From Austropuccinia psidii (taxonomy: Eukaryota > Basidiomycota > Pucciniomycetes > Pucciniales > Sphaerophragmiaceae): DNA of 64,000 nucleotides. Shown one piece after another: positions 20,308-57,987 of the stretch (its first letter is position 1; the number at the start of each line of letters is the position of its first letter). The stretch covers positions 50,392,698 to 50,456,697 of the forward strand of contig JALGQZ010000011.1 in NCBI GenBank assembly GCA_023105745.1, read 5' to 3'. A model generated the notes under the pieces. The model had not been told where the DNA came from, did no database searches, and saw only the letters and a list, made by a program, of their open reading frames with translations. The position numbers and the translations under genes are program-made.

Positions 20308-20310
20308 AAT

Positions 20311-20336
20311 AGGGGGTGTCAAAGTTACCAAATCCC
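20311..20336 (+). repeat. Left terminal inverted repeat of the Harbinger element
   Basis: Begins AGGGGGTGTCAAAGT and continues through ACCAAATCCC. It matches the reverse complement of 26,111-26,136 except for T/C at position 16. Confidence 0.9.
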
Positions 20337-20500
20337 ACACTCAAAATCCCGCGTTTTTTTTTGCCAAAATCCCACATTAATTTTTTGGGATTTCAGAAAT
20401 CCCACACCTAAAGAGGTGAGGTATTTTGAGGTACAAAAACCCAGGTTTTTTGGTACCAAATCCCGTGTTTAAATACCAAAATCCCACCTTTAGCTTCCCA
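20337..20500 (+). repeat. Left subterminal AAATCCC array
   Basis: At least eight AAATCCC or AAATCCCAC/GT-type motifs in both orientations within about 160 bp just inside the left end, mirrored by a GGGATTT cluster at the right end. Subterminal repeats of this kind are usually binding sites for the transposase or its Myb/SANT partner in Harbinger elements, so this is a likely cis element for transposition (inference). Confidence 0.75.
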
Positions 20501-20651
20501 TAAAGGCACATTTTTCAAACACACAACTCAGTAAGGGCATGTTAAATTGCATAAAAATTTCCTTCTCTTGCATAAAATCTAAATACACTCATCATTTATT
20601 AAGTTATTTGATTTCAAATTTCATTTACTACCAGCCGTTTCTTTATTTACC

Positions 20652-21898
20652 ATGCCCAAGGCATCGCAAAGGCTACCTTTACTTCAGACCTTGAACTCAC
20701 TTCAGTTCATCGATGCTCTCAACTCTGATAGTGATTCTGATATCCAGGAAGATATAATCTTGTTAGATATGATAACCTCACAAAGATACATCAATCCTCG
20801 TAGAAGATATCCATCTCATTACATGTATACAATGAATGATTTACAGACATTCTCATCTGAAAAGTTTCGACAGCTATGTAGGACAACACATGAATCATTT
20901 GAAAAATTGGTTGCACAAATTCAAGCTGATAAAATCTTTCAAAACTCATCACAAAACAAACAACGCAATCCTGCCATCCAATTGGCTGTGGCATTATCAA
21001 GGCTAGGATCAAATGGAAATGGGGCCGCTTTGGGAAAGATTGGAATGTTGTTTGGAATTAGACAGGGGGCTATTGTGTTGTACACTCAAAGAGTCATTCA
21101 GATATTAATGAAGTTGAAGCGCAAAGTAATTGTGTGGCCAACAATAGAACAACGCAGAGAAATGTCTCAAGTAATGCAAGCAGAAGGCTTCCCTGGGTGC
21201 ATTGGGTTTATTGATGGGAGTCTCATACCATTATCACAACGTCCTCCCAATGATGGTGAAGCGTATTTTGATCGCAAAAAAAGGTAAGCTGTTGAATCTT
21301 TATTCTTTATTTCAATCTTACTGATGGTTTACATATAAGGTATTCTATGTCAATACAACTGGTTTGCGATATCAACAAGCAGTTCACTGCTCTGCATGTT
21401 GGTTGTACTGGGTCACTTCATGATTCGAATGTCTATCAACATATGAAAATAGCACAAACACCTCAAGAGTTTTATGAAAAGGATCAGTACTTACTTGCAG
21501 ATTTGGCATATGCAAGCTCTCCTTGGGTTGTTCCAGCATATAAGGGAGTTGTAGCACATAATGAAGACAACCGTTCATTCAATTACTGTCTAGCAAAATC
21601 AAGGGTCAGAATCGAGCATGCAATTGGCATTTTGAAGGGGAGGTGGTTTTCTCTAAGGGAAATGAGAAATCAAATGAGGTATAATCATGAAATTGAATAT
21701 TTTGTTAGTTGGGTTGTGTCTTGCACGATTTTACATAATATGTTAGCTCAAATTGGTGATGAGTGGTTTGATTTATATGAAGATGATGATCCACCACAAG
21801 TGGAAAATCAGGCCAACAATGACATTGGGGAAGATGTGCTAAATATGCGTGAGAAAATTAAACCAATCACTTTGGCATGGAAAAATAGTCAATTGTAA
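20652..21898 (+). CDS. PIF/Harbinger DDE transposase (HARBI1-like), two exons
   Basis: Exon 20,652-21,283, intron 21,284-21,339 (56 bp, GTAAGC...ATAAG), exon 21,340-21,898; 396 residues. The splice joins AG|G and keeps the frame, restoring the nuclease domain. Residues 1-60 are an acidic N-terminus. About 105-160 form a helical DNA-binding-like region (AVALSRLGSNGNGAALGKIG). The DDE catalytic triad is D188 (GFIDGS), D239 (GSLHDSNVY) and E303 (SRVRIEHAIGILKGRW), the classic DDE_4/HARBI1 pattern. The protein would cut the element out and reinsert it in the nucleus, with a SANT-like partner needed for nuclear entry and end binding in related systems. The start is the first ATG after the AT-rich subterminal region. 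It lies tail-to-tail with the oxygenase gene, 87 bp apart. Length is typical and no defect is visible. Confidence 0.93.
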
Positions 21899-21985
21899 AT
21901 TTCTTCAGGACCAATGTTTTATGTACTTAATTTAATGGCATACAACGGAGTGGAGATGTTATTCATAAAATAAAAGTATTTACAA

Positions 21986-23328
21986 TTAACATTTTTTACT
22001 TCTTTTTTGATCCTGCATATTTCGTTCAAAGTACCCATTGACTCTTGAATTTATTTCGGTGGGTGTCATTTTCAAGAATTTGTCACCTACATTAAATAAT
22101 TTATGGTTTATTTGAAAAGAACATCCAAAATGAGTAATTGTGTCATGATTGATAATTTCTGGAGGTGGTTTTGTTGTATGATGAACCATTGTTGATGTCT
22201 TCCAAAGTATTTCCATGATGCCAGGTTTTTTTGAAAAATCGATCTCCATTTTTAATTCAGGGAAGTGTAAGCCATGTCCAGAGGGGGTGAAGATAGTAGG
22301 AAGTGGAAGGAAATCTTTTTTTGATACAAAAGAAAAAATACCATAAGTCCAGGCATTGAGATCGTTTAAATCTTTGTGTGGCTTATTGAAAAATCCATCT
22401 TGGGTGACAATGACATTGGTAAACGATTTGAATCCTTCCTTGGGATTGGCAGAAGTCCATTTGAGTTGACTGAAGTTGGGTAATTGGGCTGCTTCCATTA
22501 ATGATTGATTTTCATTTGCTGCTAATTTTGAAAAATGGGAGATTCTTGAGGTAATGAATTCGTCATATTCATGAAGCTTGATCCATTGATTGTTATCTGT
22601 TTCAATTTGATGAGGAGTTAAACCAGGTTTTCTGGAGTAAACACCTAATAATTTTGTAATCAGTCAGTAATTATTAAGGGAATATGACAAAAAGATCACA
22701 CACCTGCAGATTTTCCAGCATCAGAACCAGATCGAAACCCAATACCTTTCATAATGCCACCTTCGAGTTGCTTATTGGTTTTAATTTCTTGTCGATTTTG
22801 AGATAAGGACATTAATGTCATGACGATTTTTTGCAGCATTTGAGAGTGGCCAGAATAATTATCAAATGGGGTTATTTCATATATGATGACAGGCAAAAAC
22901 GGCTTGGATGTTTTATTAATGAGGATATAAGGATGGGGGAGTGATGGAAGTTTTAACCATGAGGCATTTGAAGATTTCTTGTCAATCGAAATTGTGGAAA
23001 AGTTTTTAAATTCTTTTTTGGAATGGCCAAGGTGAGACATTATTTCTTTTGAATCATGGATGTGTTGTCTTTGGCTTCGGGTGAGCTTTCTTTTATTATT
23101 TAATTTGGTATTATTATCCTCATGATGTTCTATATTTGGTTTAGTCCTAACCATGACATCAAGAGGAGTAATATGAGCTTCATCATCTTCCAAATCATTC
23201 TGATGATGTGCTGAGTCTGGTTTAGTCCTAACCATGACATCATCAAACTGATTGGAAGAATGAGAAGGAGGAGGAGATTTTTTTTTGAATTTTAAGGATG
23301 ATGGAAGGGATGGGAAATGAAATGACAT
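21986..23328 (-). CDS. TET/JBP-like 2OG-Fe(II) dioxygenase carried by a Harbinger element
   Basis: Exons 22,704-23,328 and 21,986-22,644 with a 59-bp GT-AG intron (22,645-22,703); 427 residues. Residues 1-110 are basic, low complexity, with a duplicated DVMVRTKP motif and a KRKLTRSQRQH nuclear-signal-like stretch. The C-terminal half carries FFNKPHKD with H298 and D300 as the HxD iron ligands. A GIMEILWKTSTMVHHTT block supplies the likely distal His (363/364). A terminal THFGCSFQI strand has His380 where TET/JBP proteins usually have the 2-oxoglutarate-binding Arg. This matches the rust 'Tet-like 2OG-Fe(II) oxygenase' family as I know it. TET/JBP enzymes oxidise 5-methylcytosine or thymine in DNA. 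Here it could demethylate element DNA to relieve silencing (inference). The His in place of Arg leaves catalysis uncertain. The ATG at 23,328 is the first in frame; the six-copy minisatellite lies just upstream. Confidence 0.72.
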
Positions 23329-23410
23329 TGCAAAAGAAACCCTTATAAATAATCCACCCCTACATGAACAAATAAAACAAAAATTAAAACAAAAAAGAAA
23401 AAAAAAGTTT

Positions 23411-23756
23411 AGTAAAGATCATAATCCAAAAAAAAAAGTCGGAAATGGATAATGATGAGTGATGGTTAGTAAAGATCATAATCCAAAAAAAAAAAAGTCG
23501 GAAATGGATAATGATGAGTGATGGTTAGTAAAGATCATAATCCAAAAAAAAAAAGTCGGAAATGGATAATGATGAGTGATGGTTAGTAAAGATCATAATC
23601 CAAAAAAAAAAAAGTCGGAAATGGATAATGATGAGTGATGGTTAGTAAAGATCATAATCCAAAAAAAAAAAAGTCGGAAATGGATAATGATGAGTGATGG
23701 TTAGTAAAGATCATAATCCAAAAAAAAAAAAGTCGGAAATGGATAATGATGAGTGA
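23411..23756. repeat. 58-59 bp minisatellite, six copies
   Basis: The unit begins AGTAAAGATCATAATCC, then an A-run of 10-12, then AGTCGGAAATGGATAATGA and TGAGTGATGGTT. Copies start near 23,411, 23,468, 23,527, 23,585, 23,644 and 23,703 and are nearly identical apart from A-run length. It lies 80 bp upstream of the oxygenase start codon, so it may be in the promoter. The near-identity implies recent expansion or homogenisation. Confidence 0.95.
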
Positions 23757-24640
23757 TGTATGATGATGATTATAAAAAAAGAAAGAAATAATGATGGGTG
23801 GGTGAGTTGTGGATGATGATGGTGATGGGAGGTGCAAAAAAATGATTAAAATATTTTAAAAGACCAAAAGGACATTACCTACAGAAAAATTTAAAAAAAA
23901 TTAGCAAAAAAGGATTGTGATTGAACAAAAAGAAGAGAAATTAACTTACCTGAATTTTGAAAAAAGTGAGTTTTTTTTTAAGAGGGAAGGGTGAAAAATA
24001 AAAATAGAATAAAAATAATTGAGAATTGACAAATCAAATTTAAAAAATTTGGTGATTTTTTTTAAGAGGGAGGAGTGAAAAGCAAAAATGAAAATTAAAA
24101 TTTGAAATTCAAAAAAAAAAAATTTAAAAAAAGTTTTTTTTTTTTTTAATTGGGAGGGGTGAACAGTAAAAAAAAAAAAATTTAATGAAATTAAAGGAAA
24201 AAATCAACTTTAAAAAGCAAATTAAAAATTAAGAATTAAAAATCAAAAATCAACTGAACAAGGGACTTTGCCCATTTAAAAGTTGAAACCCTTCAAAATA
24301 AAAAATAACCATTAAATTTAAAAAAATATATAGAAAAAGATGAAAAAATTTCCTAACAAACCATAAAATGACATTTTCATAAAAAAGGAAACAAACTGTC
24401 ATCGAATTTGATTTTTGAACAGACTTCATATAAATGCTCAATGCAAAACTTGCTCAAATTTGCAAATCTGCCGCAAATTGCAAATAAATGTCATATGCAC
24501 TTGGAATGGCAAGTTGGTGCATCAATTATGCATAAAAATTGAAATTTCCCTTTGGTAATAAAGTGGAGTTAGATTTCATGACATAAGATCAATAATTAAA
24601 CAAGCACCATATATAAATTGATCACATTACACATATGTAA
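23757..24640. other. AT-rich spacer inside the Harbinger element
   Basis: About 880 bp between the oxygenase promoter side and the 3' end of the SANT-like gene. It holds several imperfect repeats of a 'ttttttaagagggagg(a/g)gtgaa' phrase (near 23,975, 24,060 and 24,148) but no open frame that looks real. Confidence 0.6.
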
Positions 24641-24644
24641 TAAG

Positions 24645-25876
24645 TTATTTTTTATTGACTAATGCCAGAATGCGTTCCAGCTCCCCGATTGGCCTGCTTG
24701 ATGACAATGCCGCTATAGTGAGATCCATCTGGCATTGCTTTTCCTTCAATTCCAATTCACGATTCCACTTTTCTTTTTCAAATTCATGTTTCTTTGCATT
24801 TTGCTTCTCGTCAAACTCCATTTGTTTTTGTAGCTTGACTTCTTCAAACCGTTGTTTTTCCATGTTGCACACTTTCTCTTCATTCCACCTCTCCCTGTCC
24901 CACTCCAAACGTGCATGTTCACTTATTTCACGGGCTAATAAGCATGAATTTTGTCAGTAGGATTCTTAATAGTATCCATAATTGCAAGTCATACCTTTGT
25001 TGCGTGATTCAAGTATATTTGCATAAGTAGGTGCAAACATATCCAGCGACCTTTTCCTAGAACCACTCTTGTCATTCAAGTTGGGTGTCATGGCTTGATT
25101 ACGCTTTTGTGCTGAATGCATTATGGATTTACTTTTCTGATCAAAGGAGGAATAATCAATATTGGTGTGAATAAATATGACTCTTAAATGTACTTACCAA
25201 ATCATCTTGAAGGTTTTCCACTGGAACCAAGTTATCCTCATTATGAAGCAAACGATCCAGATTGTGAGGTGAATCCAAGTGATTATTCTCCTTTGAAAAG
25301 CAAATGGGCTTTAATTATCTGAGGTATAAAAAGGAAGAGACCATAGCGTACCTTATCAAGCAAAACATCATCATCATCACCATTGAGACTGTCTTTTTCT
25401 TGCGAATCATAGCTTGCAATGGGAGTGACATTGGGCTTGTGGCCAAAGAGCACATCCATTTCTGCATAGCAAGGACACATACTTTCCAGCTTTTCACTCA
25501 TGGATTTTATTCCTTTACTCTCATCATCTTCCGTTATTCCAGCCCCAGTTAAGTTTTTGAATTTTTTGGCTGCCATATATTTCTTTTTATATGTTCGCCA
25601 TCGATCTCGGATGCTGCTTGAACTAAGGTTTAGGCGATTTCGTGATTTTTTGTTGACCTCAATGGCCATAAGCTGAAACCCATGCTGCTTTGAGGAAGGA
25701 GGTCTTCCAATAGTTGTTGAACCGCTAGTACCAAAACATGACTCGAAATTGGACTTGACTGAAAGCCAATTAATTATTGTTAAATAATCTGTACGTATTA
25801 AGTGACCTGATGGATGAGGCAGGCCAGAGGTGATCTTCATGTCTGTCTTGATTTGTCTTGCTTTGGATCGAGGCAT
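24645..25876 (-). CDS. SANT/Myb-like DNA-binding partner of the Harbinger transposase, four exons
   Basis: Exons 25,352-25,876, 25,198-25,290, 24,995-25,136 and 24,645-24,934, separated by GT-AG introns of 61, 61 and 60 bp; 349 residues. Frame is kept at every junction. Residues 30-152 form the rust Harbinger SANT-like domain with conserved W37, the FESCFGTSG and HGFQLMA motifs, W93 and CPCYAEMDVLFGHKPN. An acidic DDDD patch follows near 167. The last exon (about residues 250-340) is an extended charged coiled coil rich in E, K and R. Such proteins bind the element's ends and recruit or import the transposase. The start was chosen at the ATG at 25,876, because the open frame extends further upstream only through non-ATG codons towards the terminal repeats. 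No defect was seen. The decayed relative at 3890-4330 shows the family is repeated in this genome. Confidence 0.88.
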
Positions 25877-25984
25877 TATTATATGGATGATGAAGTATAA
25901 ATGGACTATCAGCTGTTCGGTCAGATTGTCCAAAATGGAGTTCAGAAGAACATGTTGTACAGGTATGAATTGTGAGTACTCATT

Positions 25985-26110
25985 TGGGTTAGGTTTCAAG
26001 CTGAAATCCCAGATGCATGGGATTTGGTCAAAATACCATGGGATTTATACATAAAAAACCTGGGATTTAGTGTTGGGATTTGGGTTCCAAATCCCGTGTT
26101 ATTTTAAGGC
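25985..26110 (-). repeat. Right subterminal GGGATTT array
   Basis: Six or more GGGATTT/AAATCCC motifs within about 120 bp inside the right end, mirroring the left array. It also overlaps the likely promoter of the SANT-like gene, so the same sites could couple transposition and expression (inference). Confidence 0.75.
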
Positions 26111-26136
26111 GGGATTTGGTGACTTTGACACCCCCT
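26111..26136 (-). repeat. Right terminal inverted repeat of the Harbinger element
   Basis: Reverse complement begins AGGGGGTGTCAAAGTC and matches the left end; followed by the AAT target duplication at 26,137-26,139. Confidence 0.9.
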
Positions 26137-26627
26137 AATGTAAACATTTATTGAGATTATTTGAATTAGTGGAGCGTTTGATTCCTGAAAATGTAGAATT
26201 CAGTAAAATTGAAAAACTTTTTCAAGTATAAGAATGTAACTGGAAAGTCCTTCTACTTCTCTTTTGAGTAAACTAAGAAAATATTCAAAAGAAAAAGCAA
26301 GCCATTCTCTTTATATCAGAAAAAGAGATGAGAGCCACACTATTTAAAAATTTGACAAAAATAATTAATTAAGAGATTAATTAGAATATGAGATACAAAT
26401 TGAAGCAATACCTCAATTGCAAAAATATTAATAAATAAAAAATAAAGTTTATATATATCATCTATTTTTTACTTTTCTTAATACATTTATCAGAGGAAAA
26501 TTCTATTATAATTTATCTTCTTTCTTCTAAATCTGAAAAAAATGAATTTATGAGACAAAAAAGGTATATTCATTTTGCTTGTCAAAATGAGAATTTACTT
26601 CAACATGGAAAACTTTCTAAGAAATCT

Positions 26628-32759: not shown

Positions 32760-34145
32760 GGTAAAAACATGTAAGAGCTTACGTGTTTTTACTAAAAACT
32801 TACGTGTTTTTACCATCAATTGGTAAAAACACGTAATTTTATGGTAAAAACGCGTAAGGGATGGTTTTTAAATGAAATATGGCTATTTATGGCATTTATG
32901 ATGCCATTAATGCCATTTGTGGCATTAAAAATTCCATTTATGGCATTAACAGTGCCATTAATGGAATTATCAATGAAATATTTCTGATGCCATTAATTCC
33001 ATTTATGGAATCAACATTGCCATAAATGGCATTAACAATGCCATAAACGGCATTAACAATGCCATAAATGGAATTATCAATGAAATATTATTGATGCCAT
33101 TAATGCCATTTATGGCATCAACAATGCCATGTTGCATTTTTGATGCCATTAATGCCATAAATGGCATTAATAATGCCACATTAACAATGCCATTAATGGC
33201 ATTACTAATACCATGAATGGCATTATCAATGCAATAAATGGAATAATGCCATTTATGTAACACCATAAATGGCATTGTTAATTCCATTTATGTAATGCCA
33301 CAAATGGAATTTTTGATTCCATAAATGGTATTTTTGATGCCATTTATGTTATAGTTAAGGCCATTAATTCCATTTTTAAGGTCAATGTTAAGGCCATTCA
33401 TGCCATTTTTAAGGCCATTTATGGCATTTTTAAATGCATAAATGGCATTGTCAAGGCCATTAAATTCAATTTATGGCATTGCTGTAATGCCATTTATGCC
33501 AATTTTCTGGCCATAAATGGCATCTGTATGTCATTCTTGATGCCATTTATGGCATTATTATGTCATTAGTGATGCCATTTATGGCACTATTTATGTGATA
33601 AATGACACTGTTAATGCCAAAAATCAAATTTTAACTTCCACTCATCATAAATTAAATTTTGAATTCAATTTATGTCATAAATGGCATTTTCAATTTAATT
33701 ACAAACATGAACAAAAAAACATAAAAAAACATGGACTTTTTAGGCCTACAAATGTTCTTGCAAAAAAAATACCAAAATGTTGGGCTTCTGGTTTATTATT
33801 CTCAACATTCTCACCTTCATTTTAAAAGAAAAATTATTGAAATTCATAAGTGGGAACATTTTTAATGAATTTTTTTAAAAAAATAGGCCATTTTACCAAA
33901 TTTCCCAAAATAGAAAAATTGGGCAAAAAAAAAATTTGAAAAAATTCGGGGACCTTCACATCCCATGTCAGAAAAAATATGGCAAAAAAAAATGTTAAAA
34001 ATTCTCAAAAATGAGCCTGAGGAATTTTTATAAAAAAATTAGGTTACTTACGTGTTTTTACCATAAAATTACGTGTTTTGGCCATAATTTGGTAAAAACA
34101 CATAAGGGCTTACGTGTTTTTACTAAAAGCTTACGTGTGTTTACC
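32760..34145. mobile_element. Foldback/MITE-like element with 99-bp inverted termini
   Basis: A 1386-bp unit whose two ends (32,760-32,858 and 34,047-34,145) are inverted copies of each other, each built from four or five short units of the type GGTAAAAACACGTAA in both orientations. It is flanked by the 3-bp repeat ATT (32,757-32,759 and 34,146-34,148). It encodes nothing; the interior is mostly a palindromic satellite. Foldback elements and non-autonomous DNA transposons have this design and rely on enzymes from elsewhere. The superfamily is unknown; the 3-bp flanking repeat would allow a Harbinger-like source. Confidence 0.75.
32880..33620. repeat. Palindromic ATGGCATTAATGCCAT satellite
   Basis: Dozens of TGCCAT/ATGGCA units in alternating orientation, separated by short AT spacers, fill about 740 bp. 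The core ATGGCATTAATGCCAT is self-complementary, so each strand can fold into many small hairpins. No fixed period is seen. Open frames here (33,003-33,287) only translate the repeat. Confidence 0.9.
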
Positions 34146-42757: not shown

Positions 42758-44577
42758 TACCCTCCCTCAAAAAAAGGCATATCATTGAAGAGACTGTTCA
42801 GTCCTCCTATAGGCCCTGAACCTCCTTAGATGAAGGTTCCCATCTGGTATGTCATCCTCTGCAAACCATTTGCCTTTGTCTGCTGTCTGGATTCTAAATC
42901 CAACCAAATACTGTCTTTGGTCTTGACCATTAAGTATAATCTTCCTGGCCTTGATTATCTTTTTAACAGATCCAGGGAATTCTTTCACTGCCACTATGTC
43001 TTGTGGGGTGGTAGTCTTCTTTCTGGAGGGGAACTTGTCCTCTCCTGTCTGGAAGTATGGTTTGACCAAACTCACTGGGAATACTGGGTGTTTCCTGGAG
43101 AATTCCTCTGTGGATCTAACCTCCACTGCATTATTCCCTATCAATTTAATGATAGTGAAGGGTCCTACAAATGAAAATATTGTTTTCTTTGGTCCCTTGA
43201 GATTATTGAAGTTGAGTGTGGACACTAACACCTGGTCCCCTTCTTTGAAGTCTGGTTCCATATGTGTCTTGTCATACCTCTGCTTGTTGTATTATTTGGC
43301 CTCAGCTATGCACTTAGAAGCTGTGAAACAAGCTCTCTTCCACATATCATGAAATTCCTTGGATGTGGGGTGGATAGTTGAAAGATTAATCCTCAGGTGA
43401 TCCACAAAAAATAAGGGGTTCCACCCTTTTTATACCAGTGAGGGTGATTTCCCTGTTGTAGAGTGCTGGCTTGTGTTGTAAGAAAGCTGGAATGATAGTA
43501 GAAGTGTAACACAGTCATGGTTATATACTTCATGGTCCTTATATTCCATGCCATATGCACAGAACCTTCCAATGATGTCTTCCATTGTTTGGATCATCCT
43601 TTCATATATACTATCTGCCTGTGGATGGTAAGCTGTAGAAAGTTCAAGTTTTGTACCTAGCATGTCATAGAGATTGCTCCAAAAATCTGATGTGAATTTT
43701 GGGTCCCTATCCCTAATTATGATTTTTGGGACTCCACATGTGGCTATGATGTTATTCCAAAATAACAAAGCTGTATCCATTGCTGTGTCCTCCTTGTTAC
43801 ATGGCAAGCACCTTCCACTTTTGCTATACCTATCAACTATTACTAGGCAGGAATTGAAATTTTCTTTGCCTCCTGGGACAAGTCCTGTGACCCAGTCCAC
43901 ATTAATGGTTTCCCATGGGTGTTTGGGTTCTTCTATGTGTTGAAGGAGCACATATTGTTTACCATCTTTTCTGTTTGCCTTTTGGAATCTTTCACAAGTG
44001 TTTATATATTCACTCAACTCTTGCTCCCATTTGGGACACCAAGCTGTGCTTGCTACCCTTTCCTTGGTCCTGTATTCACTCATGTGTCCCATATAGGGGC
44101 AGTCATGAGATTGCTGCAGGATCAGTGATATGTGGTCCCTGTACACCACTGTGAGGGCACTTGTGTGCTTCTCTCTGTGATATAGTAGTCAATCTAGAAG
44201 AAAAAACTTCTTATCCTTATAGTCCCTCGACAAGGGTTCCTCTAACTGGGATTCCAGCTCTTGGCTCCTGTATTTCTGTTGAGGAAGTTGCAACAATATG
44301 CCACACTGTTTGTATTTGGCATAAGGCTTCATTACTGAACTGAAGAGCTCATTGTATAGTTCTGAGGAACCTACCCCAAATATAGGAGTTTCTGTTCCTT
44401 CTGATTCAGCTTCTTCACTTGCTGGGGTACCAATTTCTGGCGCCCATTCAGAAGATCTGAAGTTTTTCCTCCTGTCTATTTCCATGATATAGATAGGGAT
44501 CTTGGATACTACTTCAGGGTCATAAGCTGGGTTTCTTTTGACATTATCCAGTGGCCATCTGAATTGCTGTGGCTTTT
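42758..44577 (-). pseudogene. pol: Integrase part of element 1b pol, disrupted
   Basis: Pieces: linker 44,189-44,485 (MEIDRRKNFRSSEWAPE); integrase 43,430-44,149 with a partial zinc module (CERFQKA, where the second Cys of the usual CERCQKA is Phe). The catalytic D, D and E lie in [16 protein letters not shown] and DSIYERMIQ. The C-terminal part is 42,782-43,261, with FVGPFTIIKLIGNNAVEV and KHPVFPVSLVKPYF. Stops and frame changes separate them. Integrase inserts reverse-transcribed DNA; this copy is truncated and dead. + strand open frames over it are shadows. Confidence 0.88.
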
Positions 44578-45990
44578 TGTCAGGCTGAGTCTATGATAAA
44601 GGTGAAATGAAGCTCTTCACAACTTTAACTATGACTGTGACATGGATAGCAGTATTAAAAAAGTTTGTATTAAAGATATAAAGGGCATTACTAATGTGGA
44701 TTAGTGGTGCTGAGCACTGTTGAAATCCCTGGTTTCAGCTTTACCTGTTGGTTTGAAATAATACAGACTACAATACTAAAATTTATAGTATAACCTCTTC
44801 ATTTTCCAAGAGTATAACTGTTTTTGACAGTTGTACTGCATAGGAATTCAAGAGAAGGATGGGATTCCTTTTCTGGAAGTGAAAAGGCCTCCTTTTATCC
44901 TGAAATGGGGTGAAAAGGCTGCTAGACCTTTCCATGTAGAGGAAGTGAAGATTTTTCACTCTCAAGGACAGGCTTGCGGTTTGCAAAAAGGCTTTATAGC
45001 CTGTTTTAGGCTAAGATGTGGTTTTGAAACCACATCTGGGCAGTTTTCACCAATCCAGGGTGAAGGCTTTCATCTGGGGACCACACAGCCTGATTCTGAC
45101 ATGTATGATGCGTAGAATGCTGTTCAGAACCTGTATGGGACCCCAGCATTGAGTGAAATATGAGTTATTGAAGTAAAAAAATTTTCTTTGTCTGTTTGAC
45201 ATCTCATAATCATTGTTATGGGATATTATCCCATGGTAAAGCTGTATTGGCCAGACTGTGAGATTTTGACCTTAAAACAGCCATAGCTTTGTCAGTTTTT
45301 GAGATATAAACCTCAAAATTGGTTTGATATGTAGGCCTTTATGTGCTCTACACAATGGTACCTCATTTGATATGTTTATCATTCAATATGCTAAAGGTAT
45401 GCCATGTACAAGACTTTTGTACATATGTGTGTTTTAGGCAAAAAGCTTTATTGGGCTTGTTTGCCTTATACCTTTTGTTCTAGATAAGATATAGGGAAAT
45501 GAATGGCACCATCAGATAGCCCTGAGTTTATTCTTTCCAAAAATACCCCACTTTAGGTATCTCAAACTAAAACTGTAGAAGTTAGATGAGAGGTGAATAC
45601 TTTATTCACCCTTATTTGGTGTGTATTTGACCATAACTTCTGTAATACTGGTGCTAGCCCAGTTTGGCTGGTACCGTTGGATAGACCAAACTTAGAGATT
45701 CATTTTCAATACCCATTTGATGGGGTTAAGCCTCTTTCTCTGTATTTCAGATGAGAGGTGAAAATTAAGGTTTATGCTCAGCAGCAACTTTGAGCAGAAA
45801 TAACTTTGTTATTCTTTGTCCTATGATGACGGGACTTTTATATTTGGAAAGGATTGAGTTTCCTCTTTCTTTTGATACATTTTGAGCTGGTTTGGCTCAG
45901 CTCCATTTTTTGGTGGTATCTTGGCTTTACCATTGGTTTATGGTATTTGGCTGTCATCCTTGTGCTCTGGTTTTGAGTCAAAGGATAACA
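44578..45990 (-). repeat. 3' LTR of element 1c
   Basis: Starts TGTCAGGCTGAGTCTATGA and ends CAAAGGATAACA in + orientation (1413 bp). The polypurine-tract complement TACCCTCCCTC follows at 45,991. Confidence 0.9.
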
Positions 45991-45999
45991 TACCCTCCC

Positions 46000-47820
46000 T
46001 CTAAAAAAGGCTCATAATTGATAAGACTTTTCAGTCCTTGTAGAGGCTTTGAATCTCCTTAAATGAAGGTTCCCATCTGGTATGGCATCTTCTGCCAACC
46101 ACTTGTCTGTATCAGCTGTCTAGTTCTTGAATCTGACTAAGTACTGTCTCTGATCCTTACCATTAAGTCTGATCTTCCTGGCCTTGATGATTTTCCTCAC
46201 TGGTCCAGGGGAATCTTCCACTTCCACTATTTCTGGTGGTGTGGGGTTCTTCTTTCTGGAGGGGAATTTATCCTCCTCTTTCTGGAAGTATGGCTTGACT
46301 AAACTCACTGGGAAGACTGGGTGTTTCCTGGAAAATTCCTCTGTGAGTTTGACTTCCACTGCATTTTCCCTATCAATCTAATGATAGTGAAGGGCCCTAC
46401 AAATGAGTCTTTCATTTTCTTGGGTCCTTTGAGATTATTAAAGTTCTGTGTCGACACTAACACTTGGTCCACTTTTTTAAAGTCAGGTTCCATGTGTGAT
46501 TTGACCCACCTCTGCTTTTTATATTTGTTTTCCTCAGCTATGCATTTGGAAGCTGTGTCACAAGCTGTCTTCCACATTTAAGGGAAATCTTTGGCTGTGG
46601 GGTGGATGGTCATAAGACTTTTCTTTAAGTGATCCACAGGCAATAGGGGATTCCACCCTTTTTCTACCAGTGAAGGTGTTTTTCCTGAGGTAGAGTGCTG
46701 ACTTGTGTTATAAGTCAGTTGGACTGCTGGTAGAAGGGTAACCCAGTCATGGATGTAACCTTCATGGTCCTTATATTCCATGCCATAGGCACAGAATCTC
46801 CAAAGGATGTCCTCCATTGTTTGGATCATACTTTCAGCTAATCCATCTGTTTGTGGATGGTAAGCTGTAGAAAAAGCAAGTTTAGTACCTAGCATGTCAT
46901 AGAGGTTGGTCCAAAATTCAGATGTGAGCTTTGGGTCCCCATCACTGATGATGATCTTAGGGACTCCACAGGTAGATATGATGTTGTTCCAGAATAACAT
47001 AGCAGTATCCATGGCTGTGTCCTCCTTGTGACATGGTAGGCACCTCATACTCTTGCTGAACCTATCAACTGTGATTAAGCAGGCATTGAAGTTCTCTTTG
47101 CCTCCTGGGACAAGTCCTGTAACCCAGTCCATGTTGATGGTCTCCCATGGGTGTTTGGGTTCTTCTATGTGTTGAAGTAACCCATAATTCTTCACATCTT
47201 TTCTATTTTCCTTTTGCCATCTTTCACAAGTGTTGATATATTCACTCAACTCCTGTTCCCATTTGTGCTACCAAGCAGTGCTTGCCACCCTTTCTTTGGT
47301 TCTTTCTTCACTCATGTATCCGATATAGTGGCAGTCATGGCATTCCTGCAGGATCAAAGATATATGTTCTGTGTCTACTATTGTGAGTGCACTAGTTTTT
47401 TTCTCTCTATGGTAGAGCAGGCCATCTATAAGGAAACATTTATTGTCCTTATAGTCCCTCAACAAGTGTTCTTCTAACCAGGATTCCAGTTCTGGGCTCC
47501 TGTCCTTTTGCTGAAGGAGTTGCAACAATATGCCACATTGTTTGTTTTTGGCATATGTCTTCATCACTGCATTGAAGAATTCATTGTGCAGTTCTGAGGA
47601 ACTTATTCCCAATATGGGAGTTTCTGTTCCTTCTGAGTCAGTGTTTCCACTTCCTGGGATACCACTTTCTGGTGCCCACTCAGAATATCTGAAGTTTTTC
47701 TTCCTGTCTATTTCCATGAAATGGACAGGAATTCTAGCTTCTACTTCAGGGTCCTAAGCTAGGTTGCTTTTGACATTGTCCCGTGGCCATCTGCATTGGT
47801 ATGACTTTTACCCTCTTTGT
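46000..47820 (-). pseudogene. pol: Integrase region of element 1c pol
   Basis: The linker and HHCC region (47,268-47,717) includes HISLILQECHDCHYIGYMSE. The catalytic core (46,578-47,249) has [16 protein letters not shown] and [11 protein letters not shown], so D, D and E are kept although neighbouring residues are altered. The Cys pair of the zinc module reads CERWQKE (second Cys lost). The C-terminal part lies at 46,120-46,577 with FVGPFTIIRLIG and KHPVFPVSLVKPYF. A stop (CAW*) separates zinc module and core, and a frameshift splits the C-terminal part. No chromodomain was seen, unlike elements 2 and C, so this is a different Ty3/gypsy lineage. Confidence 0.88.
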
Positions 47821-47842
47821 ATATGATGGTCATATTCCCTCT

Positions 47843-48184
47843 CTACTCCTGAATGGCTATTTTCCACCTCAAAATGTGTCTATTGGTAGTCTTCATGTTC
47901 AGTAAAGACTTCAAGGCTGTGCAGTCTGTGTAGACTTCAAAGACTGCACCCTCCAAATCATAATAGAGTTTCTCTAGAGCCCAGACTAAGCATAGACATT
48001 CAGTCTGGGTGGCCCCATACCTAGCTTCTAAATCTTTCAGTTTCCTAGAGATGTAACATATTACTCCCTCTCTTGGTTCACCATCTACAATTTGTCTCTG
48101 GTGAAGGGCTTCTCCTAAGAATTGGCTACATGCTGCATCTATGTATAACTTGTATGGTAGTTCAAAGTCAGGCAAGATGAGCAC
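47843..48184 (-). pseudogene. pol: RNase H domain of element 1c pol
   Basis: Contains the three expected acidic positions: Asp in LYIDAACS, Glu in TECLCLVWALEK and Asp in VYTDCTALKS. RNase H removes the RNA template during reverse transcription. It is separated from the RT frame by disruptions at 48,185-48,343. Confidence 0.88.
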
Positions 48185-48343
48185 AGGTGAATTTTTGAGT
48201 TCATATTTGATCTTCTCATATGCATCCCTTCTTTCCTTGGTAATTTCAAAAACTAAATCTTTTGATCATAACTTGTATAAACTACTAGTTATGTGGACAA
48301 AACGTTTGATGTGGTTTTAATAGTAGCTAGGAAACGCAAGGAA

Positions 48344-49813
48344 TTATTGCATCTCCTTGATGTTTCTTGGTACTGGCTTTTTCAGTACTGCTTCTACTTT
48401 GTTCTGGTCAATTGCCAGACTAAGACCTGGGACTTGACGTCCTAGAGCTAGTAGCTCCTGTTGGCCAAAATTGCACTTTTTAAGTGAAAGTTCCAGATTT
48501 ATGGGTGTGCATTTACTTAGCACTCTGTCTATGTATTGCACACGGTCTTCCCATGTCTCTGAGTATATAATGATATCATCAATATATACTACCATCCAGC
48601 CTTCCAGCATTTCTTCTTGAAATATGGTGTCCATCATACTTTGGAAGTGGGCTGGTGCATTCTTGATGCCAAATGGCATCCTGGTGTAATAATACATGCC
48701 CATATGACATATGATTCTGAGTAATTTGATGGGGTTTGTTTTAACTCCATTCTGGTGGAAGCCTTTCATACAATCCATTTTGGTTATGAATTTGGCTTTT
48801 GCCAGTTTGTCTAATGCATGAGGTATCCTGGGTATAGGGTGCCTGTCAGCTTTGGTGTAGTTATTTAGAGCTCTGAAATCTCCACACAACCTAGACTTGC
48901 CATCATGCCAGGTGATCAGGACAGGAGTGGTAATTTCCACTATTTCATTATGTCCAATCTTTCTGATGACATCCATGTCCAGGAGTTCATTGATTTGTTT
49001 TTCAATTTCTTTCCTAGTTTCCAGACTTGCTGGGTAAGGAGGTCTCCTGAGCATGGGTGGATAAGGTCTTTCCACCTCCAGATATAGTTCTATATCATGG
49101 CCTTTAAGCTTTCCTAATGGTTCTTCACCAATGGCAAATGCTGGTCTATTCTTTCTCAGCATTTTCAGTAAGCTTAGTTTTTGTTTACTGGTGAGGGTAG
49201 TACTAAACTGTCCCTCTCTGAATTCATTCAGTAGTTCTTCCAGAGGGTCTTGGGAAGATATGTGGTATATATCAAGTGAAATTCTTTTTTCCTTGTTGGT
49301 ACCAATGGTAATGTGCCTGTTTTTACTATTGTAAATATCTATGCCATACATCCTCTGGTAATTGGTTCCCAGTAAAATCCCTTGGATGTGGGCATCATCA
49401 AGCACTAAAAGCTCTGGGTTGAGTCTGATATTACCCTTCCTATGGGGTATAATTATCTCTTTGATAATTTTCCCAATGGAAGTCATCTTCCATGCTGCAC
49501 TCTTGAAGTTCTTTGCTTTGGTGGGCAACAGCTGGTTTTCCCAGTTTGAGAAGTGGATTTCCAGATAATTTCTGGCCACTTTGGAGCAGTGTGCCCCACT
49601 GTTTATGATCAATGGGTTTTGAGCATTGTCAATGCAAACATTCATTTTTGTGGCCATCCCATGTATGTATGCCATTCCTTTGGTTGGTGTGACCAGGAAT
49701 GTTTGTGCATCTTGTTTGTGTTTGCACAAGTTTTTGTTGGCAGTGTCTTGTGGCATGCCTGCTTCTAACTGTATGTCCTGGATTTCTAGTGGTGTTTCGT
49801 CTTGGTATTCCAC
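48344..49813 (-). pseudogene. pol: Protease and reverse transcriptase of element 1c (489-codon open frame)
   Basis: The longest open piece of element 1c pol. The protease block reads INSGAHCS: the catalytic Asp of D-S-G is Asn (codon AAC, complement of 49,601-49,603), so the protease is inactive. RT motifs follow in order: RPYPPMLRRPPYPAS, TTPVLITWHDGKSRLCGDFR, KMDCMKGFHQ, YTRMPFGIKNAPAHFQSMMD and the YIDD box (VVYIDDIIIYSE), all intact. It ends at a stop in the connection/thumb region (NIKEMQ). RT copies the element RNA into DNA. Taken alone the RT domain looks functional, but the polyprotein around it is broken. Confidence 0.9.
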
Positions 49814-51392
49814 TAGAAATTCTTCTCTTGGGTCTTTCTCTTAATCATATTTTTCTCTGATGGCATCTCCCATAGAGTCTGAGTCAGAATCCTCTGTTGG
49901 GGATTCCTCCTCTGGGACTTTCTCAATGGCATAGACTTTTTTCTTTGCCTTTGGACAGTTGTTGGCATAGTGGTCTGTTGAGTCACAGTTGTGACAAGAA
50001 TTTTCTTCTTTGCCACTTCTGCCACTCTTTCTCTGGGCTTGTCTTTAAACTCCACCCTGAAAGGTTGTTTCTCCTTGAAAACACTGCTTTTATATGGGGT
50101 GTATTTCCCTATATTAGTTCTTTTCCCTACATATTGTAAGGAATTTGCAATGTCATCTAGAGTGCAATTGTGGTTGGATCTGAATTTTACTGCATTTTCT
50201 AGTTCTACTGGCATTTGTGTCAGGATTTTGTGATTCCTCATCTGAATGTTCATTTGAGGATCAATGGCTTCAAGTCTTTTATACTGTCTGAGACACCACT
50301 CATTGATCCTTGTCCACAGAGTATTTGTCATTTTCAAATGACATTGTCTTTTGCCATATTGAAGTACAATTGCTGTACTTTTGGATGATTTGACTCTTCC
50401 ACCATGTCCAGTTTCTTCTACCATTGATTTCTTTCATTTCTGTGTACCATATACTAGCATGTCCTTTAAATGCTGTATTAAGTCTAGCAGTAATCCAGTA
50501 GTCTGGTATGCTTGGTACATCAATGAAGAGTCTATCAATATAATCTATGAGTTCCATATGATCATATTCTCCAGTTCCAGAGAGTTTGGGCCAGCTTGAT
50601 GCCCCAGGAAGCTGTTTCAAGGCTTCCTTCTCTGAATAAGACATATTATTTACATCCTGGTATTGTGATGGAGATCTTGCCTTATTCATCAGCATGGCGT
50701 ATGGTTTGATGTCATCCTGATGATATGGATTATCCATAACATGGCCTTGTGGTTGGGGCTTCATGCTATGGTAGACATTAAACAGTTTGTTTATGTCTTA
50801 ATCCAGAAAATCCCTGTCCCTTTTGCTGTGGTGTTGTTCTTCAAAGACTAGATTCAGTCTTTTGTTGGTTTCTTCAGAGGCTTTGCTCAATTGAGCATGT
50901 CCTTCTTGAAGAGTTTTGACAATTTTATCCATGGAGGCTGTTAATATTTTCATCCTCTCATGGCTTGCTTCAAGTTCTGCAAACTGCTTTTGAGTTTTCT
51001 CGGAATATTGGGAAATTTGTAACCACAGTGCATCAGTGTTAAGGTTACTCTCAGGTGTGACAACATTGTGATCAATCTGAGTGGGGGTAATCTTTCTATT
51101 AATGGGACTACTGAGTATAGAGTTATTTACAGCTATTTATGGTTCTTGTGCACTTCTTTCACCAAATCCAACAGTTTCTGGATCATAGGGTCTGACTATT
51201 TCTTCCTCTGGCTGAAGGTGGTCTTGCTTTTGCCCTTGTATCCTTTTCATTGCCTGGAAACGTCCTGGGATTTTGAAGAATGGTGACTCTTGGCCACTGA
51301 TCTGTTGGTTTCTGAATGGTGTGAAGCCACTGGAGAGCTGATTTGGCCTGCTCTGTGTGAGCCTGAAGGAATCTGAGTATGCCCTGTCTGGG
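49814..51392 (-). pseudogene. gag: Gag of element 1c, C-terminal part
   Basis: From 51,392: disordered region (DPDRAYSDSFRLTQSRP), a stop after SAQEP (about 51,137), helical region (ELEASHERMK), another stop (FLD*DIN), then the Gag domain (50,300-50,764, GEYDHMELIDYIDRLFIDVP and WWKSQIIQKYSN). Near 49,985-50,030 a CCHC zinc knuckle (CHNCDSTDHYANNC, C-X2-C-X4-H-X4-C) is in a different frame from the preceding segment, showing a frameshift. Gag packages RNA. The amino end lies beyond element 2 at 61,682-62,142. Confidence 0.85.
51388..51392. other. Target-site duplication CTGGG, left
   Basis: The pentamer CTGGG immediately left of element 2 recurs at 61,677-61,681. Removing element 2 and one pentamer restores both reading frames of element 1c gag. 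Confidence 0.93.
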
Positions 51393-52168: not shown

Positions 52169-52909
52169 ATATTTGATTCTTTCTTTCATTTATTTATATT
52201 CATTTTATCTTATTCATCAATTATGATCTCTTTTATGATTTAATTATCTTTAATGATTATGATTTTTTCTTTCTCATCAATTTCATCTCATTTATTTCAT
52301 TCATATGAAATTGATTTTTCTTCTTTCTTAATCATTGCTGACCATTTCATTCACTTCATTCATTTTATCAAATCAAATTTTTTCTGTGTTATCATTCAGG
52401 TTCTATTTAGGAATTATTGATTGGTTTAATTGATTGGATTATTCATTGGGATTCATTGGGTTTATTGATTCAGCAATTCAGGATTTTTTCATTGGATTGG
52501 ATTGATTGACTTTGAATTCTCAAGATATTTTATTGATCCTCAAGAATTGATTTTGATTATTGATTGATTTGACTCATCAAGATATTTGAATTGATTTCTG
52601 AAGATTTTGAAGTGATTGATTGATTCCTCAAGACCTTGATTTCATATTGAAGACACTGATTTATTGACTGATTGATCATTGATTGAATATTGATTGATTT
52701 TTGATTACTCAAGATTATTGATATTTAATTTGAATTTGATTTATTGTTGATTTTTGATTGAATTGATTGATTGTTGATTGAAGTTGATTTCACCTCAAGA
52801 ATTGAATTGATTCCTCAAGACTCATCAAGATTTATTGTGATTGATTTGGCCAAGTTCTGATTTCTGTTCTCAATACCATCAAGTTTCTTTTATTCAACTT
52901 CTGTTCATA
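52169..52909 (+). other. Untranslated leader of element 2
   Basis: 740 bases rich in TTGATTGATT, TCATTTAT and CAAGA phrases with no conserved frame. It probably holds packaging and translation signals, none of which I can define. Confidence 0.5.
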
Positions 52910-54271
52910 ATGTCAGTTCAGCATAGTCCCCCAGCAAAGAACACTAGATCCCAAAAAATCCCAGCTGTTCTTACTCCTACAATAAAGGCTCCTCTTGACT
53001 GCACACCATCAGTTCATCAACTGAGTGCAAATTTGGACAGAGGACCACCAATGGAAGGAGCAGCACCCTCAAGAAGAGGTGGAATGGAATCTAGAAGATC
53101 AAGATCCTTTTCTGGACTTTTGGGTGGCTATCCTGGCATGTCTGAAGGGGAAAGAGCAAGATTAGGGGAAGTTGAAGATGAAGAGGGGGAAGAGTCCATG
53201 GAAGAGGAAGATTCTGGGGAAACTGAAGTGGCAGATGCCTTGGCAAATGCTCCAGAGGTGCCTCAGGGTTCTAATCTAGCACTTTCTAGTCAACCTCTTG
53301 TCTCTAAAACTGATCCAAGTCTCCTCAAGATGATGGAGCAGATGACTCAATTCATGAGGCAACTCACTCAAGCAGTTGCTCCCAGGGACAATTCCAAAGC
53401 CCCTGCTTTCAAGACTCTATCCATGAAGGCACCTGATTCTTTTGATGGTACTCAAGCTCAGAAATTGAGAGGATTTATCCATTCCTTTCAATTAATCTTC
53501 CATAATGATCCAGCAAATTTCTTCTCTGACAGGAAGAAAGTTCTTTACTCAACTTCTTCTCTCACTGGTAGAGCTGGAAAGTGGATTGAACCCTATCTCT
53601 CAAATATTTCCAATGAAGACCCTTCCTACCTCCTCAATGATTGGCCATTATTTGAATCTCAATTATTCACTCTGTTTGGTGACCCCAATGAAGTCAGGAA
53701 AGCTGAACAAGAGTTGGACAATTTGAGGATGAAGGAGAGTGGTCATGTTTCCTTGTACATTGCAGATTTCAGAAGCTTAATGTCAAGAATTGGAGATTGG
53801 GGGGAAAGAGCTTATATCCATGTTTACAGAAGAGGATTGGCATCAAGATTATTGGATCAGTTGGCTTCTCACCGTGGAGATTTTGATAATCTTCAAGAAC
53901 TTATGGATGTCACTTTAGAGTTAGACACAAGATATCATGAGAGGCAAAAAGAAAAGGGTGGAAATCAAGAAAAGAAGCCTCCAGTCAATGGATCCAATCA
54001 ATCTAGGCCTCCTCAAAACTCATCTTCAAAGAGGCCTCACCAGAAGAAGAATAAGAAGGGAAAGCAGTTTCAATCTTCAAAGGACAAGCCTCATGCTGCT
54101 CTCCTCAATAAGGACAATAAATTGATTGGTTCTGAAAAGGACAGGAGGATTAAAGAGGGGTTGTGTACTTATTGTGGTGGAAAGCACCCAATTGAAAAAT
54201 GCTTCAAGAGACCTCAGAACAAGCCTGGGTCCTCATCAAGAGGCTTCCCTAGCAAGCAGGGAAAAGCCTGA
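52910..54271 (+). CDS. gag: Gag of element 2
   Basis: 453 residues from the ATG at 52,910 (MSVQHSPPAKNTRSQ); the frame is open further upstream but only through non-ATG codons. Residues 1-150 are disordered, with an acidic E/D-rich stretch. About 160-345 form the retrotransposon Gag domain (LRGFIHSFQLIFHNDP, GKWIEPYLSNI, WPLFESQLFTLFGDPNE, YIADFRSLMSRIGDWGERAY). A Lys-rich linker leads to the zinc knuckle CTYCGGKHPIEKC at 419-431 (C-X2-C-X3-H-X4-C, one residue shorter than the usual C-X2-C-X4-H-X4-C). Gag assembles the particle and binds RNA. No stop interrupts it. Pol follows in the -1 frame relative to gag. Confidence 0.92.
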   Translation: MSVQHSPPAKNTRSQKIPAVLTPTIKAPLDCTPSVHQLSANLDRGPPMEGAAPSRRGGMESRRSRSFSGLLGGYPGMSEGERARLGEVEDEEGEESMEEEDSGETEVADALANAPEVPQGSNLALSSQPLVSKTDPSLLKMMEQMTQFMRQLTQAVAPRDNSKAPAFKTLSMKAPDSFDGTQAQKLRGFIHSFQLIFHNDPANFFSDRKKVLYSTSSLTGRAGKWIEPYLSNISNEDPSYLLNDWPLFESQLFTLFGDPNEVRKAEQELDNLRMKESGHVSLYIADFRSLMSRIGDWGERAYIHVYRRGLASRLLDQLASHRGDFDNLQELMDVTLELDTRYHERQKEKGGNQEKKPPVNGSNQSRPPQNSSSKRPHQKKNKKGKQFQSSKDKPHAALLNKDNKLIGSEKDRRIKEGLCTYCGGKHPIEKCFKRPQNKPGSSSRGFPSKQGKA

Positions 54272-54285
54272 GTGGGAATCATGAT

Positions 54286-57200: not shown

Positions 57201-57987
57201 GGGACAGACAGAGAGGGTAAATCAGATACTAGAACAGTACCTTTGGATGTATGTCAGCTATCATCAAGATGACTGGTACACCTGGCTCTCTCTGGCTGAA
57301 TTTGCCTATAATAATGCAGAACATTCATCAACCAAGCAATCACCTTTTTTCACCATTTATGGAACAAATCCCAGTTTTGACTCAATCCATATTTCTCAAG
57401 ACTCACCTGCTGGAAAGGTATCAACAAAACTCCAATCAGTACAGCAGGTTGTCAAAGAAGAATTAGAGTCAGCAATAATGAGATTCAAGAAGTATGCAGA
57501 TAGAAATAGGACAAGTCCACCTGATTTCCAACCTGGGGACAAAGTATGGCTAGCTTCCAAGAACATCAAGACAACAAGACCCACCAAGAAGTTATCAGAA
57601 AGATGGTTGGGACCTTTTGAAGTTCTGAAGAAGATTGGCAGCCATGAATATCACCTCAAGTTGCCTCAGCAATGGAAGTCATCTCACCCTGTCTTTCATG
57701 TGTCCTTATTAGAACCAGTTAAGCATTCAACTATCCCAAATCAACATCAATGGCCACCACCATCAATCCTAGTGGAGGAGCAAGAAGAATGGGAAGTGGC
57801 TCAGGTTCTGGACTCAAAGCTCAAAAGAGGTAAATTATGGTATCTTGTAGAGTGGAAAGGATTCAGTGAAGACCCAGAAAGAACCACTTGGGAACCAGCT
57901 TCCAACCTTACCAACTCACCAGACCTTGTTAAGGATTTCCATTCATTATATCCAGACAAGCCTGGTCCAATTACCTCAAGGGTTTGA
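54286..57987 (+). pseudogene. pol: Pol of element 2 (protease-RT-RNase H-integrase-chromodomain) with three stops
   Basis: One frame throughout, interrupted by TAA at 55,624-55,626, 56,605-56,607 and 56,689-56,691. Domains: protease (ILIDSGATNSFIA, near 54,410); RT (LCVDYRKLNAVTRKNRYPVP, KIDLHGAYN, VMPFGLTNAPASFQN, VVYLDDIMV); RNase H (ETDASDYALGAV, HDKELLGIVWALKR, VLTDHSSLQYF). Integrase has H-H-C-C (CQQC) and D, D-X35-E in SMDFITQ, VSDRGS and [11 protein letters not shown]-type HPETDGQ has become HPEAEGQ and VVVDR has become VVVHR. A GPY/F-like module and a C-terminal chromodomain follow (LWYLVEWKGFSEDPERTTWE). The first stop falls three codons after YLDD. There is no ATG at the frame start; the frame is open back into gag, suggesting -1 frameshifting for expression (inference). 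Confidence 0.92.

What the first reader, a model, noticed from the sequence alone, without database searches (positions are those of the whole stretch)
20311..26136. A complete Harbinger transposon carries a TET/JBP-like DNA dioxygenase
Seen: matched terminal repeats, AAT duplication, DDE transposase, SANT-like partner and a third, spliced 427-residue gene with HxD (H298, D300), a GIMEILW...HHTT block and THFGCSFQI. Known: TET/JBP enzymes oxidise modified bases in DNA, and fungal TET/JBP genes have been reported with KDZ-type transposons. To my knowledge, transport by a PIF/Harbinger element is not well described. Inference: the element may bring its own eraser of cytosine methylation and so escape silencing in a heavily methylated genome.
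Basis: partly seen in the sequence, partly recalled or inferred. Interest (0 to 1): 0.9.

Follow-up and report, generated by a model that had tools for sequence, protein, structure and literature searches.

The report
Jumping gene carrying a demethylase-like enzyme
In a plant rust fungus, a common cut-and-paste jumping gene carries its own copy of a DNA-demethylase-like enzyme, a kind of cargo already reported in rusts, and the enzyme is kept by selection although old copies of the jumping gene still decay as methylated DNA does.

Summary
Window 20311-26136 is a complete Harbinger-type (PHIS superfamily) element with 26-bp terminal repeats, AAT duplication, transposase and SANT-like partner. 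It carries a spliced 427-residue Tet-like gene (PF20515, E 3.5e-32). The genome is probably Austropuccinia psidii (myrtle rust). The gene is no chance insert: 19 of 20 transposase-selected loci carry it in place, as do both tested loci of a sister subfamily. The genome holds 1212 perfect element ends. Pairwise dN/dS of TET is 0.26-0.45 in the 11 distant copies, like the transposase.

The central claim is already in print: Kojima 2025 (PMC12730594) reports TET-carrying Harbinger families in rusts, A. psidii included, with the same anti-silencing idea. Added here: (i) duplications are 3 bp, AAT or ATT, in 12 of 12 clean copies, not TA; (ii) TET-carrying copies still lose CpG 3-24 times faster than other C, so any protection is transient; (iii) this lineage, shared with Puccinia, has His where TETs have the 2-oxoglutarate-anchoring Arg. 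Catalysis is untested; the structure model failed.

The parts
20308..20310 (.). left copy of the target-site duplication AAT
   Evidence: 12 of 12 two-ended copies with clean termini (at most one mismatch per end) have matching AAT or ATT
20311..20336 (+). left terminal inverted repeat AGGGGGTGTCAAAGTTACCAAATCCC (T type)
20652..21898 (+). Harbinger-type DDE transposase, 2 exons (20652-21283, 21340-21898), 396 aa, open
   Evidence: PF13359 E 8.3e-27
21986..23328 (-). Tet-like 2OG-Fe(II) dioxygenase gene, 2 exons (23328-22704, 22644-21986), 427 aa; H298, D300, H363 iron-ligand candidates; H380 at the 2OG-Arg site
23409..23758 (.). 59-bp tandem repeat, 6 copies, between the TET and SANT-like genes
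24645..25876 (-). SANT-like partner protein gene, 4 exons (25876-25352, 25290-25198, 25136-24995, 24934-24645), 349 aa; a relative models as an N-terminal helical bundle and a C-terminal long helix
26111..26136 (-). right terminal inverted repeat (C type)
26137..26139 (.). right copy of the target-site duplication AAT

Best explanation
The stretch is a recently mobile, complete DNA transposon of the PHIS superfamily (Harbinger in the broad Repbase sense), one of a high-copy family in a rust genome that is probably Austropuccinia psidii. Besides the transposase and a SANT-like partner it carries, as a long-standing part of the element, a Tet-like dioxygenase gene tail-to-tail with the transposase. 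Shown: gene content, fixed position in the sampled family copies and in two loci of a sister subfamily, recent spread, and purifying selection on all three genes. Inferred: the Tet-like protein acts on methylated bases of the element or its target DNA and helps a young copy to be expressed or to move before host CpG methylation settles on it. The help is transient: older TET-carrying copies decay by CpG-to-TpG change down to the CpG depletion of the rest of the window.
For: PF20515 E 3.5e-32 and DDE_Tnp_4 E 8.3e-27. TET in 19 of 20 loci chosen by transposase similarity. TET in the same tail-to-tail place in both tested loci of a sister subfamily, L049 and L050 (transposase exons 62-65% identical). 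40 of 40 scored TET places, the window included, print as 99-100% identical over the full gene, of 1919 first-look candidates. 1212 exact ends, control 0. TET and partner fragments on the same contig, with locus tags one or two apart, in 4 cases in isolate MF-1. Pairwise dN/dS against the window: TET 0.26-0.45 in the 11 copies with dS over 0.25; transposase 0.20-0.52 in the 13 with dS over 0.17; partner 0.22-0.46 in the 12 with dS over 0.15. H298 in 20 of 20, D300 in 19 of 20, H363 in 19 of 20 aligned sequences. CpG observed/expected 0.413 in the element against 0.080 in the rest of the window, as expected of a young insertion. Context from papers: TEs of A. psidii are hypermethylated at CpG (PMC12774611, passages).
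Against: No enzyme activity, expression or methylation data were available for this element. Old TET-carrying copies reach CpG o/e as low as 0.03, at or below the rest of the window, and even the closest fetched copy, L044, shows 5 of 60 CpG positions against 3 of 875 other C/G positions changed; the window itself lacks 2 of L044's 27 CpG. The A. psidii paper reports higher, not lower, 5mCpG in younger TE families as a whole (PMC12774611, passages). Comparison with other elements was too thin to say whether decay is slower in TET carriers (33 background pairs; 6 and 11 CpG sites in the bins of 1-3% and 5-8% divergence). Closer pairs give higher TET dN/dS, 0.38-0.79 in 8 copies. Among MF-1 predicted proteins showing the HxD stretch, 6 of 25 have it broken. 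The 2OG-anchoring Arg of known TETs is His here. AlphaFold gave no usable model.
Confidence: 0.6

Rival explanations
1. The TET gene serves the transposition reaction or its repair (oxidised bases at ends or target feeding excision repair) or acts in trans on the whole genome, rather than unsilencing the element's own copies.
For: TET-carrying copies are not spared CpG decay. TET is kept next to the transposase and is under similar constraint. Kojima cites oxidised 5mC over both DNA transposons and retrotransposons in mushrooms (PMC12730594, discussion).
Against: No data on timing or targets. Long-term decay does not exclude short-term cis protection.
Confidence: 0.2
2. This Tet-like lineage no longer uses 2-oxoglutarate in the usual way: it has a changed co-substrate or has become an iron-binding 5mC reader or blocker. 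It is still maintained by selection.
For: At the site of the strictly conserved 2OG Arg (R1896 HsTET2, R289 NgTET1: PMC7854593, passages; R385 of CcTet, whose Ala change abolishes activity: PMC11040006, passages) this lineage has His in 14 of 14 rows, rusts of genus Puccinia included, while two other TET sequences of the same genome in that alignment have Arg. Of eight top PF20515 loci, six show the site and all six have Arg; in two the open frame ends before it. hhalign pairs the same columns (probability 99.2, E 7.4e-20). His is kept in 19 of 20 element sequences. Iron ligands are kept.
Against: The site was assigned by alignment at about 24% identity, without a model. Other residues could hold 2OG. 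PMC7854593 notes that 2OG-binding residues are not universally conserved across the wider dioxygenase superfamily. In MF-1 proteins that show the site, 9 of 11 have His, one Pro, one Asn.
Confidence: 0.17
3. The Tet-like gene is a chance host insertion or passenger without a role.
For: Some copies have stops in TET (0-8 in 19 copies). TET genes are very common in this genome (7498 first-look candidates for PF20515).
Against: Fixed position in 19 of 20 loci and in two sister-subfamily loci; dN/dS well under 1 in distant copies; linked in a second isolate.
Confidence: 0.03

Closest known systems
TET+ Harbinger families (PHISTA) of rust fungi, Kojima 2025, PMC12730594
   Same: PHIS-type DDE transposase, Tet-like dioxygenase in rusts (his PU type), a third protein, terminal repeats; the host species list includes A. 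psidii; same anti-silencing hypothesis (sections read).
   Different: There: TA duplications, and third proteins said to lack a Myb/SANT domain. Here: 3-bp AAT/ATT duplications in 12 of 12 clean copies, and a third protein with weak Myb/SANT-like signals in relatives. Whether this family is one of the 15 could not be checked (supplement not available).
Pangu group of the PHIS superfamily, Han et al. 2015, PMC4482050
   Same: 5'-ANT-3' target duplications and termini usually starting AG or GG (passages); this element has A[A/T]T and AGGGGG.
   Different: No transposase tree was made here, and Kojima's text places TET+ Harbingers near or inside Nuwa, with weak support.
KDZ (Kyakuja-Dileera-Zisupton) transposons with TET/JBP genes in basidiomycetes (Iyer et al. 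2014, recalled and cited by Kojima; not held)
   Same: A DNA transposon carrying a TET/JBP gene.
   Different: Different transposase superfamily. Kojima places CcTet near the AG-type TETs of Kyakuja and Zisupton, and CcTet has the 2OG Arg.
CcTet of Coprinopsis cinerea (PMC11040006, passages)
   Same: Fungal TET family enzyme with HxD...H iron site.
   Different: Has the 2OG Arg (R385) that is His in this lineage; 5mC/6mA activity is shown for CcTet and untested here.

Membership tests
Tet-like 2OG-Fe(II) oxygenase superfamily (PF20515) | Profile match over the curated cut-off | tested here: met
   112.6 bits, cut-off 27
Tet-like 2OG-Fe(II) oxygenase superfamily (PF20515) | HxD...H iron triad | tested here: met
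   H298, D300, H363: 20, 19 and 19 of 20 element sequences; 14 of 14 rows of its lineage
Tet-like 2OG-Fe(II) oxygenase superfamily (PF20515) | Double-stranded beta-helix fold | tested here: inconclusive
   AlphaFold model of relative P0001, mean pLDDT 43.7
Catalytic TET enzymes (HsTET2, NgTET1, CcTet) | Conserved Arg that holds 2-oxoglutarate after the distal His | tested here: not met
   His380 in its place in 14 of 14 rows; Arg in L001 and L007; Arg called strictly conserved in HsTET2 and NgTET1. Not filed as a TET enzyme, only as Tet-like
Catalytic TET enzymes (HsTET2, NgTET1, CcTet) | Oxidation of 5mC in DNA | not testable with these tools
   needs biochemistry
PHIS superfamily (PIF/Harbinger, ISL2EU, Spy, Pangu, Nuwa) | DDE transposase of the IS5/Harbinger type | tested here: met
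   PF13359 E 8.3e-27 and PF04827 Plant_tran 2.5e-07
PIF/Harbinger group in the narrow sense | TWA target duplication | tested here: not met
   AAT in 8, ATT in 4 of 12 copies; the rule is from PMC4482050
Pangu group | ANT target duplication, termini starting AG/GG | tested here: met
   only A or T seen as N
Pangu group | Transposase inside the Pangu clade | not tested
   no reference transposases were fetched
PHISTA (TET+ Harbinger of rusts) | TA target duplication | tested here: not met
   the third base matches on both sides in 12 of 12 clean copies; the empty-site test did not complete
PHISTA (TET+ Harbinger of rusts) | TET gene plus a third gene in the element | tested here: met
PHISTA (TET+ Harbinger of rusts) | Third protein without Myb/SANT domain | tested here: inconclusive

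The most novel reading that the evidence does not exclude
Rust transposons carry a whole Tet-like lineage, here called TH type, in which the 2-oxoglutarate Arg has been replaced by a conserved His while iron ligands and purifying selection are kept. It may be a TET with another co-substrate or product, used by transposons to mark or shield their DNA in a way that slows silencing briefly without erasing CpG methylation in the long run.
Probability: 0.17. Interest if true: 0.8.

Novelty: new member of a known kind. Interest (0 to 1): 0.45.

Why it matters
It gives a complete, recently mobile example of a transposon that carries an epigenetic eraser-like enzyme in a genome whose TEs are reported as hypermethylated, with many copies of graded age. 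That makes the published idea of escape from methylation testable on long-read methylation data that a paper reports, and already shows that escape cannot be lasting. The His-for-Arg change flags a rust Tet-like lineage whose chemistry should not be assumed.

Tried and rejected
Chance insertion of a host gene: rejected. TA duplication: disfavoured, because if only TA were duplicated the neighbouring base would match on both sides in 12 of 12 copies with a probability of about 0.001 (my estimate from 8 A and 4 T; counts). Of 15 two-ended copies, three with diverged ends (L031, L033, L038) mismatch at one base and were left out of the 12; L031 and L033 share flanks, so they are one insertion. 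L037 has a doubtful second end (3 mismatches) and was left out too. Structure of TET by AlphaFold: failed. Sequence search of solved structures for TET (0 matches at E 1; profile best E 0.3, unrelated) and for the partner (best E 1, unrelated): nothing. Foldseek for the partner: nothing under E 0.7; the Sap1 and telomere-Myb rows by VIA-align are at a level that may mean only a common helical arrangement. Contrast of CpG decay with other elements: too few background pairs (33). Empty-site search and genome-wide AAT end count: not completed. Passages and sections of Kojima 2025 that I saw do not discuss the Arg: its main text holds 0 uses of 'arginine' and of 'purifying' (figures not held). A six-term paper search for rust TET and arginine (at least five terms) listed six of 87 papers, none on fungal TET by title. 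Supplements were not available, so neither result is claimed to be unprinted.
Full report
What is there. The window is part of a 1.015-Gb genome of 84 contigs. The TET proteins found by search are all from Austropuccinia psidii MF-1 (45 of 45 hits), and size and GC agree with the published gigabase genome of 33.8% GC (window 33.6%; PMC8063080 passages). I therefore take the organism to be A. psidii; no name was given. The element runs from 20311 to 26136 with 26-bp terminal repeats differing at one base, flanked by AAT. It holds three spliced genes open in the window: transposase 396 aa (+), Tet-like 427 aa (-), and a SANT-like partner 349 aa (-). The DDE motifs (GFIDGS, ADLAY, RIEHAIG; assignment recalled) are present.

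Is it more than chance. The 26-mer end occurs 613 + 599 times, against 0 for the reversed control. Among the first 100 places listed, 31 neighbouring plus/minus pairs lie within 30 kb, all 31 pairing a T-type with a C-type end; 14 are 5.7-6.2 kb apart, 2 about 2.2-2.3 kb, one 4.5 kb and 14 longer. The TET gene DNA found 40 scored places of 1919 first-look candidates, all 40 over the full gene and printed as 99-100% identical, window included. The element has therefore spread recently and widely.

Is TET part of it. I fetched 20 loci of 9.2 kb, the 20 best-placed transposase loci, chosen without regard to TET. 19 of 20 carry TET in the same order and orientation; the exception, L040, matches only the left end and the first 1090 bases of the transposase gene. 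At least part of the partner gene is found in 16 of 20. Two loci of a sister subfamily (transposase exons 62-65% identical) also carry a TET gene tail-to-tail behind the transposase, 41-59% identical in its pieces to the window protein and 75-89% to MF-1 protein P0034. In the MF-1 assembly, TET and partner fragments sit on the same contig, with locus tags one or two apart, in four cases. The TET gene is thus probably older than the split of the subfamilies. Modules also recombine: in L029 the middle of TET is 74-83% identical to the window but 89-92% to L032, while its transposase and partner are nearer the window.

Selection. Against the window copy, dN/dS of TET is 0.26-0.45 in the 11 copies with dS over 0.25, stops excluded and counted; the 8 closer copies give 0.38-0.79. 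The transposase gives 0.20-0.52 in the 13 copies with dS over 0.17 and 0.24-1.24 in 7 closer ones; the partner 0.22-0.46 in 12 copies with dS over 0.15 and 0.64 in one closer one. In distant copies, leaving out codons hit by CpG changes alters little. Most of these copies have stops (0-9 per gene), which pushes the ratio towards 1, so constraint on the active lineage is probably stronger. H298, D300 and the distal H363 are kept in 20, 19 and 19 of 20 sequences, window included. In the same call, of MF-1 predicted proteins that show the HxD stretch 19 of 25 have it intact.

Does it protect the element. A. psidii is reported to have CpG methylation concentrated on TEs, more in younger families, and CpG loss (PMC12774611 and PMC8063080, passages). 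The window outside the element has CpG observed/expected 0.080, the element 0.413. That fits a young insertion. TET-carrying copies nevertheless decay: in the closest fetched copy (L044) 5 of 60 CpG positions but 3 of 875 other C/G positions show the transition; in L043 14 of 60 against 17 of 875; the most depleted carriers have o/e 0.03-0.10 (direction assumed, the window taken as the younger copy). Across the family, when other sites differ by 1-3%, 53% of CpG sites have already changed in one of the two copies (7 pairs). All NCG contexts are hit, TCG most (251 of 618; ACG 114 of 364, GCG 80 of 269, CCG 44 of 169), against 4-7% for other C. TET cargo does not keep copies free of such damage in the long run. 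The rate could not be compared with TET-less elements for lack of data.

Active site. The Harbinger TETs end in T-H-F-G-C-S-F-Q-I, where the TET families with the highest Pfam scores in this genome have T-R-L-S-M-S-L-Q-I (or, in one, I for the M) at that place (six of eight loci; in two the open frame ends before it). In an alignment of 16 sequences, 14 have His (window, two A. psidii relatives, six proteins of P. triticina, P. striiformis and P. graminis, five from unnamed sources) and two, L001 and L007, have Arg; a profile comparison pairs the same columns. In HsTET2 and NgTET1 the corresponding Arg is called strictly conserved for 2OG binding (PMC7854593, passages), and in CcTet its change to Ala abolishes activity (PMC11040006, passages). 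That the rust column is the same one is my inference from alignment. The lineage may be catalytically altered, and TET chemistry should not be assumed.

Target duplication and class. In 12 of 12 copies with both ends clean, the three bases outside AGGGGG...CCCCCT match: AAT in 8, ATT in 4. A TA-only duplication does not predict the third-base match. By the rules of Han et al. 2015 (PMC4482050, passages) ANT is the Pangu signature, TWA that of PIF/Harbinger proper. Kojima 2025 gives TA for the TET+ Harbingers of rusts. The two readings differ by how the end A/T is assigned, so this family may be one of his, read differently; the empty-site test that would settle it did not complete.

Prior work. 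Of Kojima 2025 I saw the abstract, introduction, start of the methods, results 3.1 and 3.4, the first part of the discussion, the figure legends and passages. [quoted passage not shown] psidii among the Harbinger hosts, and the escape hypothesis. A 2026 review cites it as yet to be functionally characterised (PMC13297926, passages). The finding is therefore a well-preserved member of a published kind.

Noticed in passing
window 21986-23328: The window TET gene is 9 bp shorter than the other near-identical copies (38 of 39 span 1352 bp, one 1353); in the protein alignment three residues are missing in frame.
   Followed up: partly
window 23409-23758: 59-bp tandem repeat in six copies between TET and partner genes; the near-identical copy L044 is about 66 bp shorter over the stretch between the two genes.
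   Followed up: no
genome-wide, L001-L008: PF20515 had 7498 first-look candidates and 150 of 150 scored places over the cut-off; the top families are single-exon TETs with Arg at the 2OG site, carrier unknown.
   Followed up: partly
window 32885-33586: Dense palindromic repeats of the type ATGGCATTAATGCCAT over about 0.7 kb.
   Followed up: no
window 42782-50797 and 52841-57987: Long ORFs that by eye look like Ty3/gypsy-type gag-pol pieces; not searched against families.
   Followed up: no
L031 and L033: Two copies 37 kb apart on one contig with matching flanks: a segmental duplication of an inserted element.
   Followed up: partly
L043:743-861: A second, inverted copy end of the element lies about 22 bp from the first.
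   Followed up: no
L044:5841-7744: A near-identical copy has about 1.9 kb inserted inside its partner gene.
   Followed up: no
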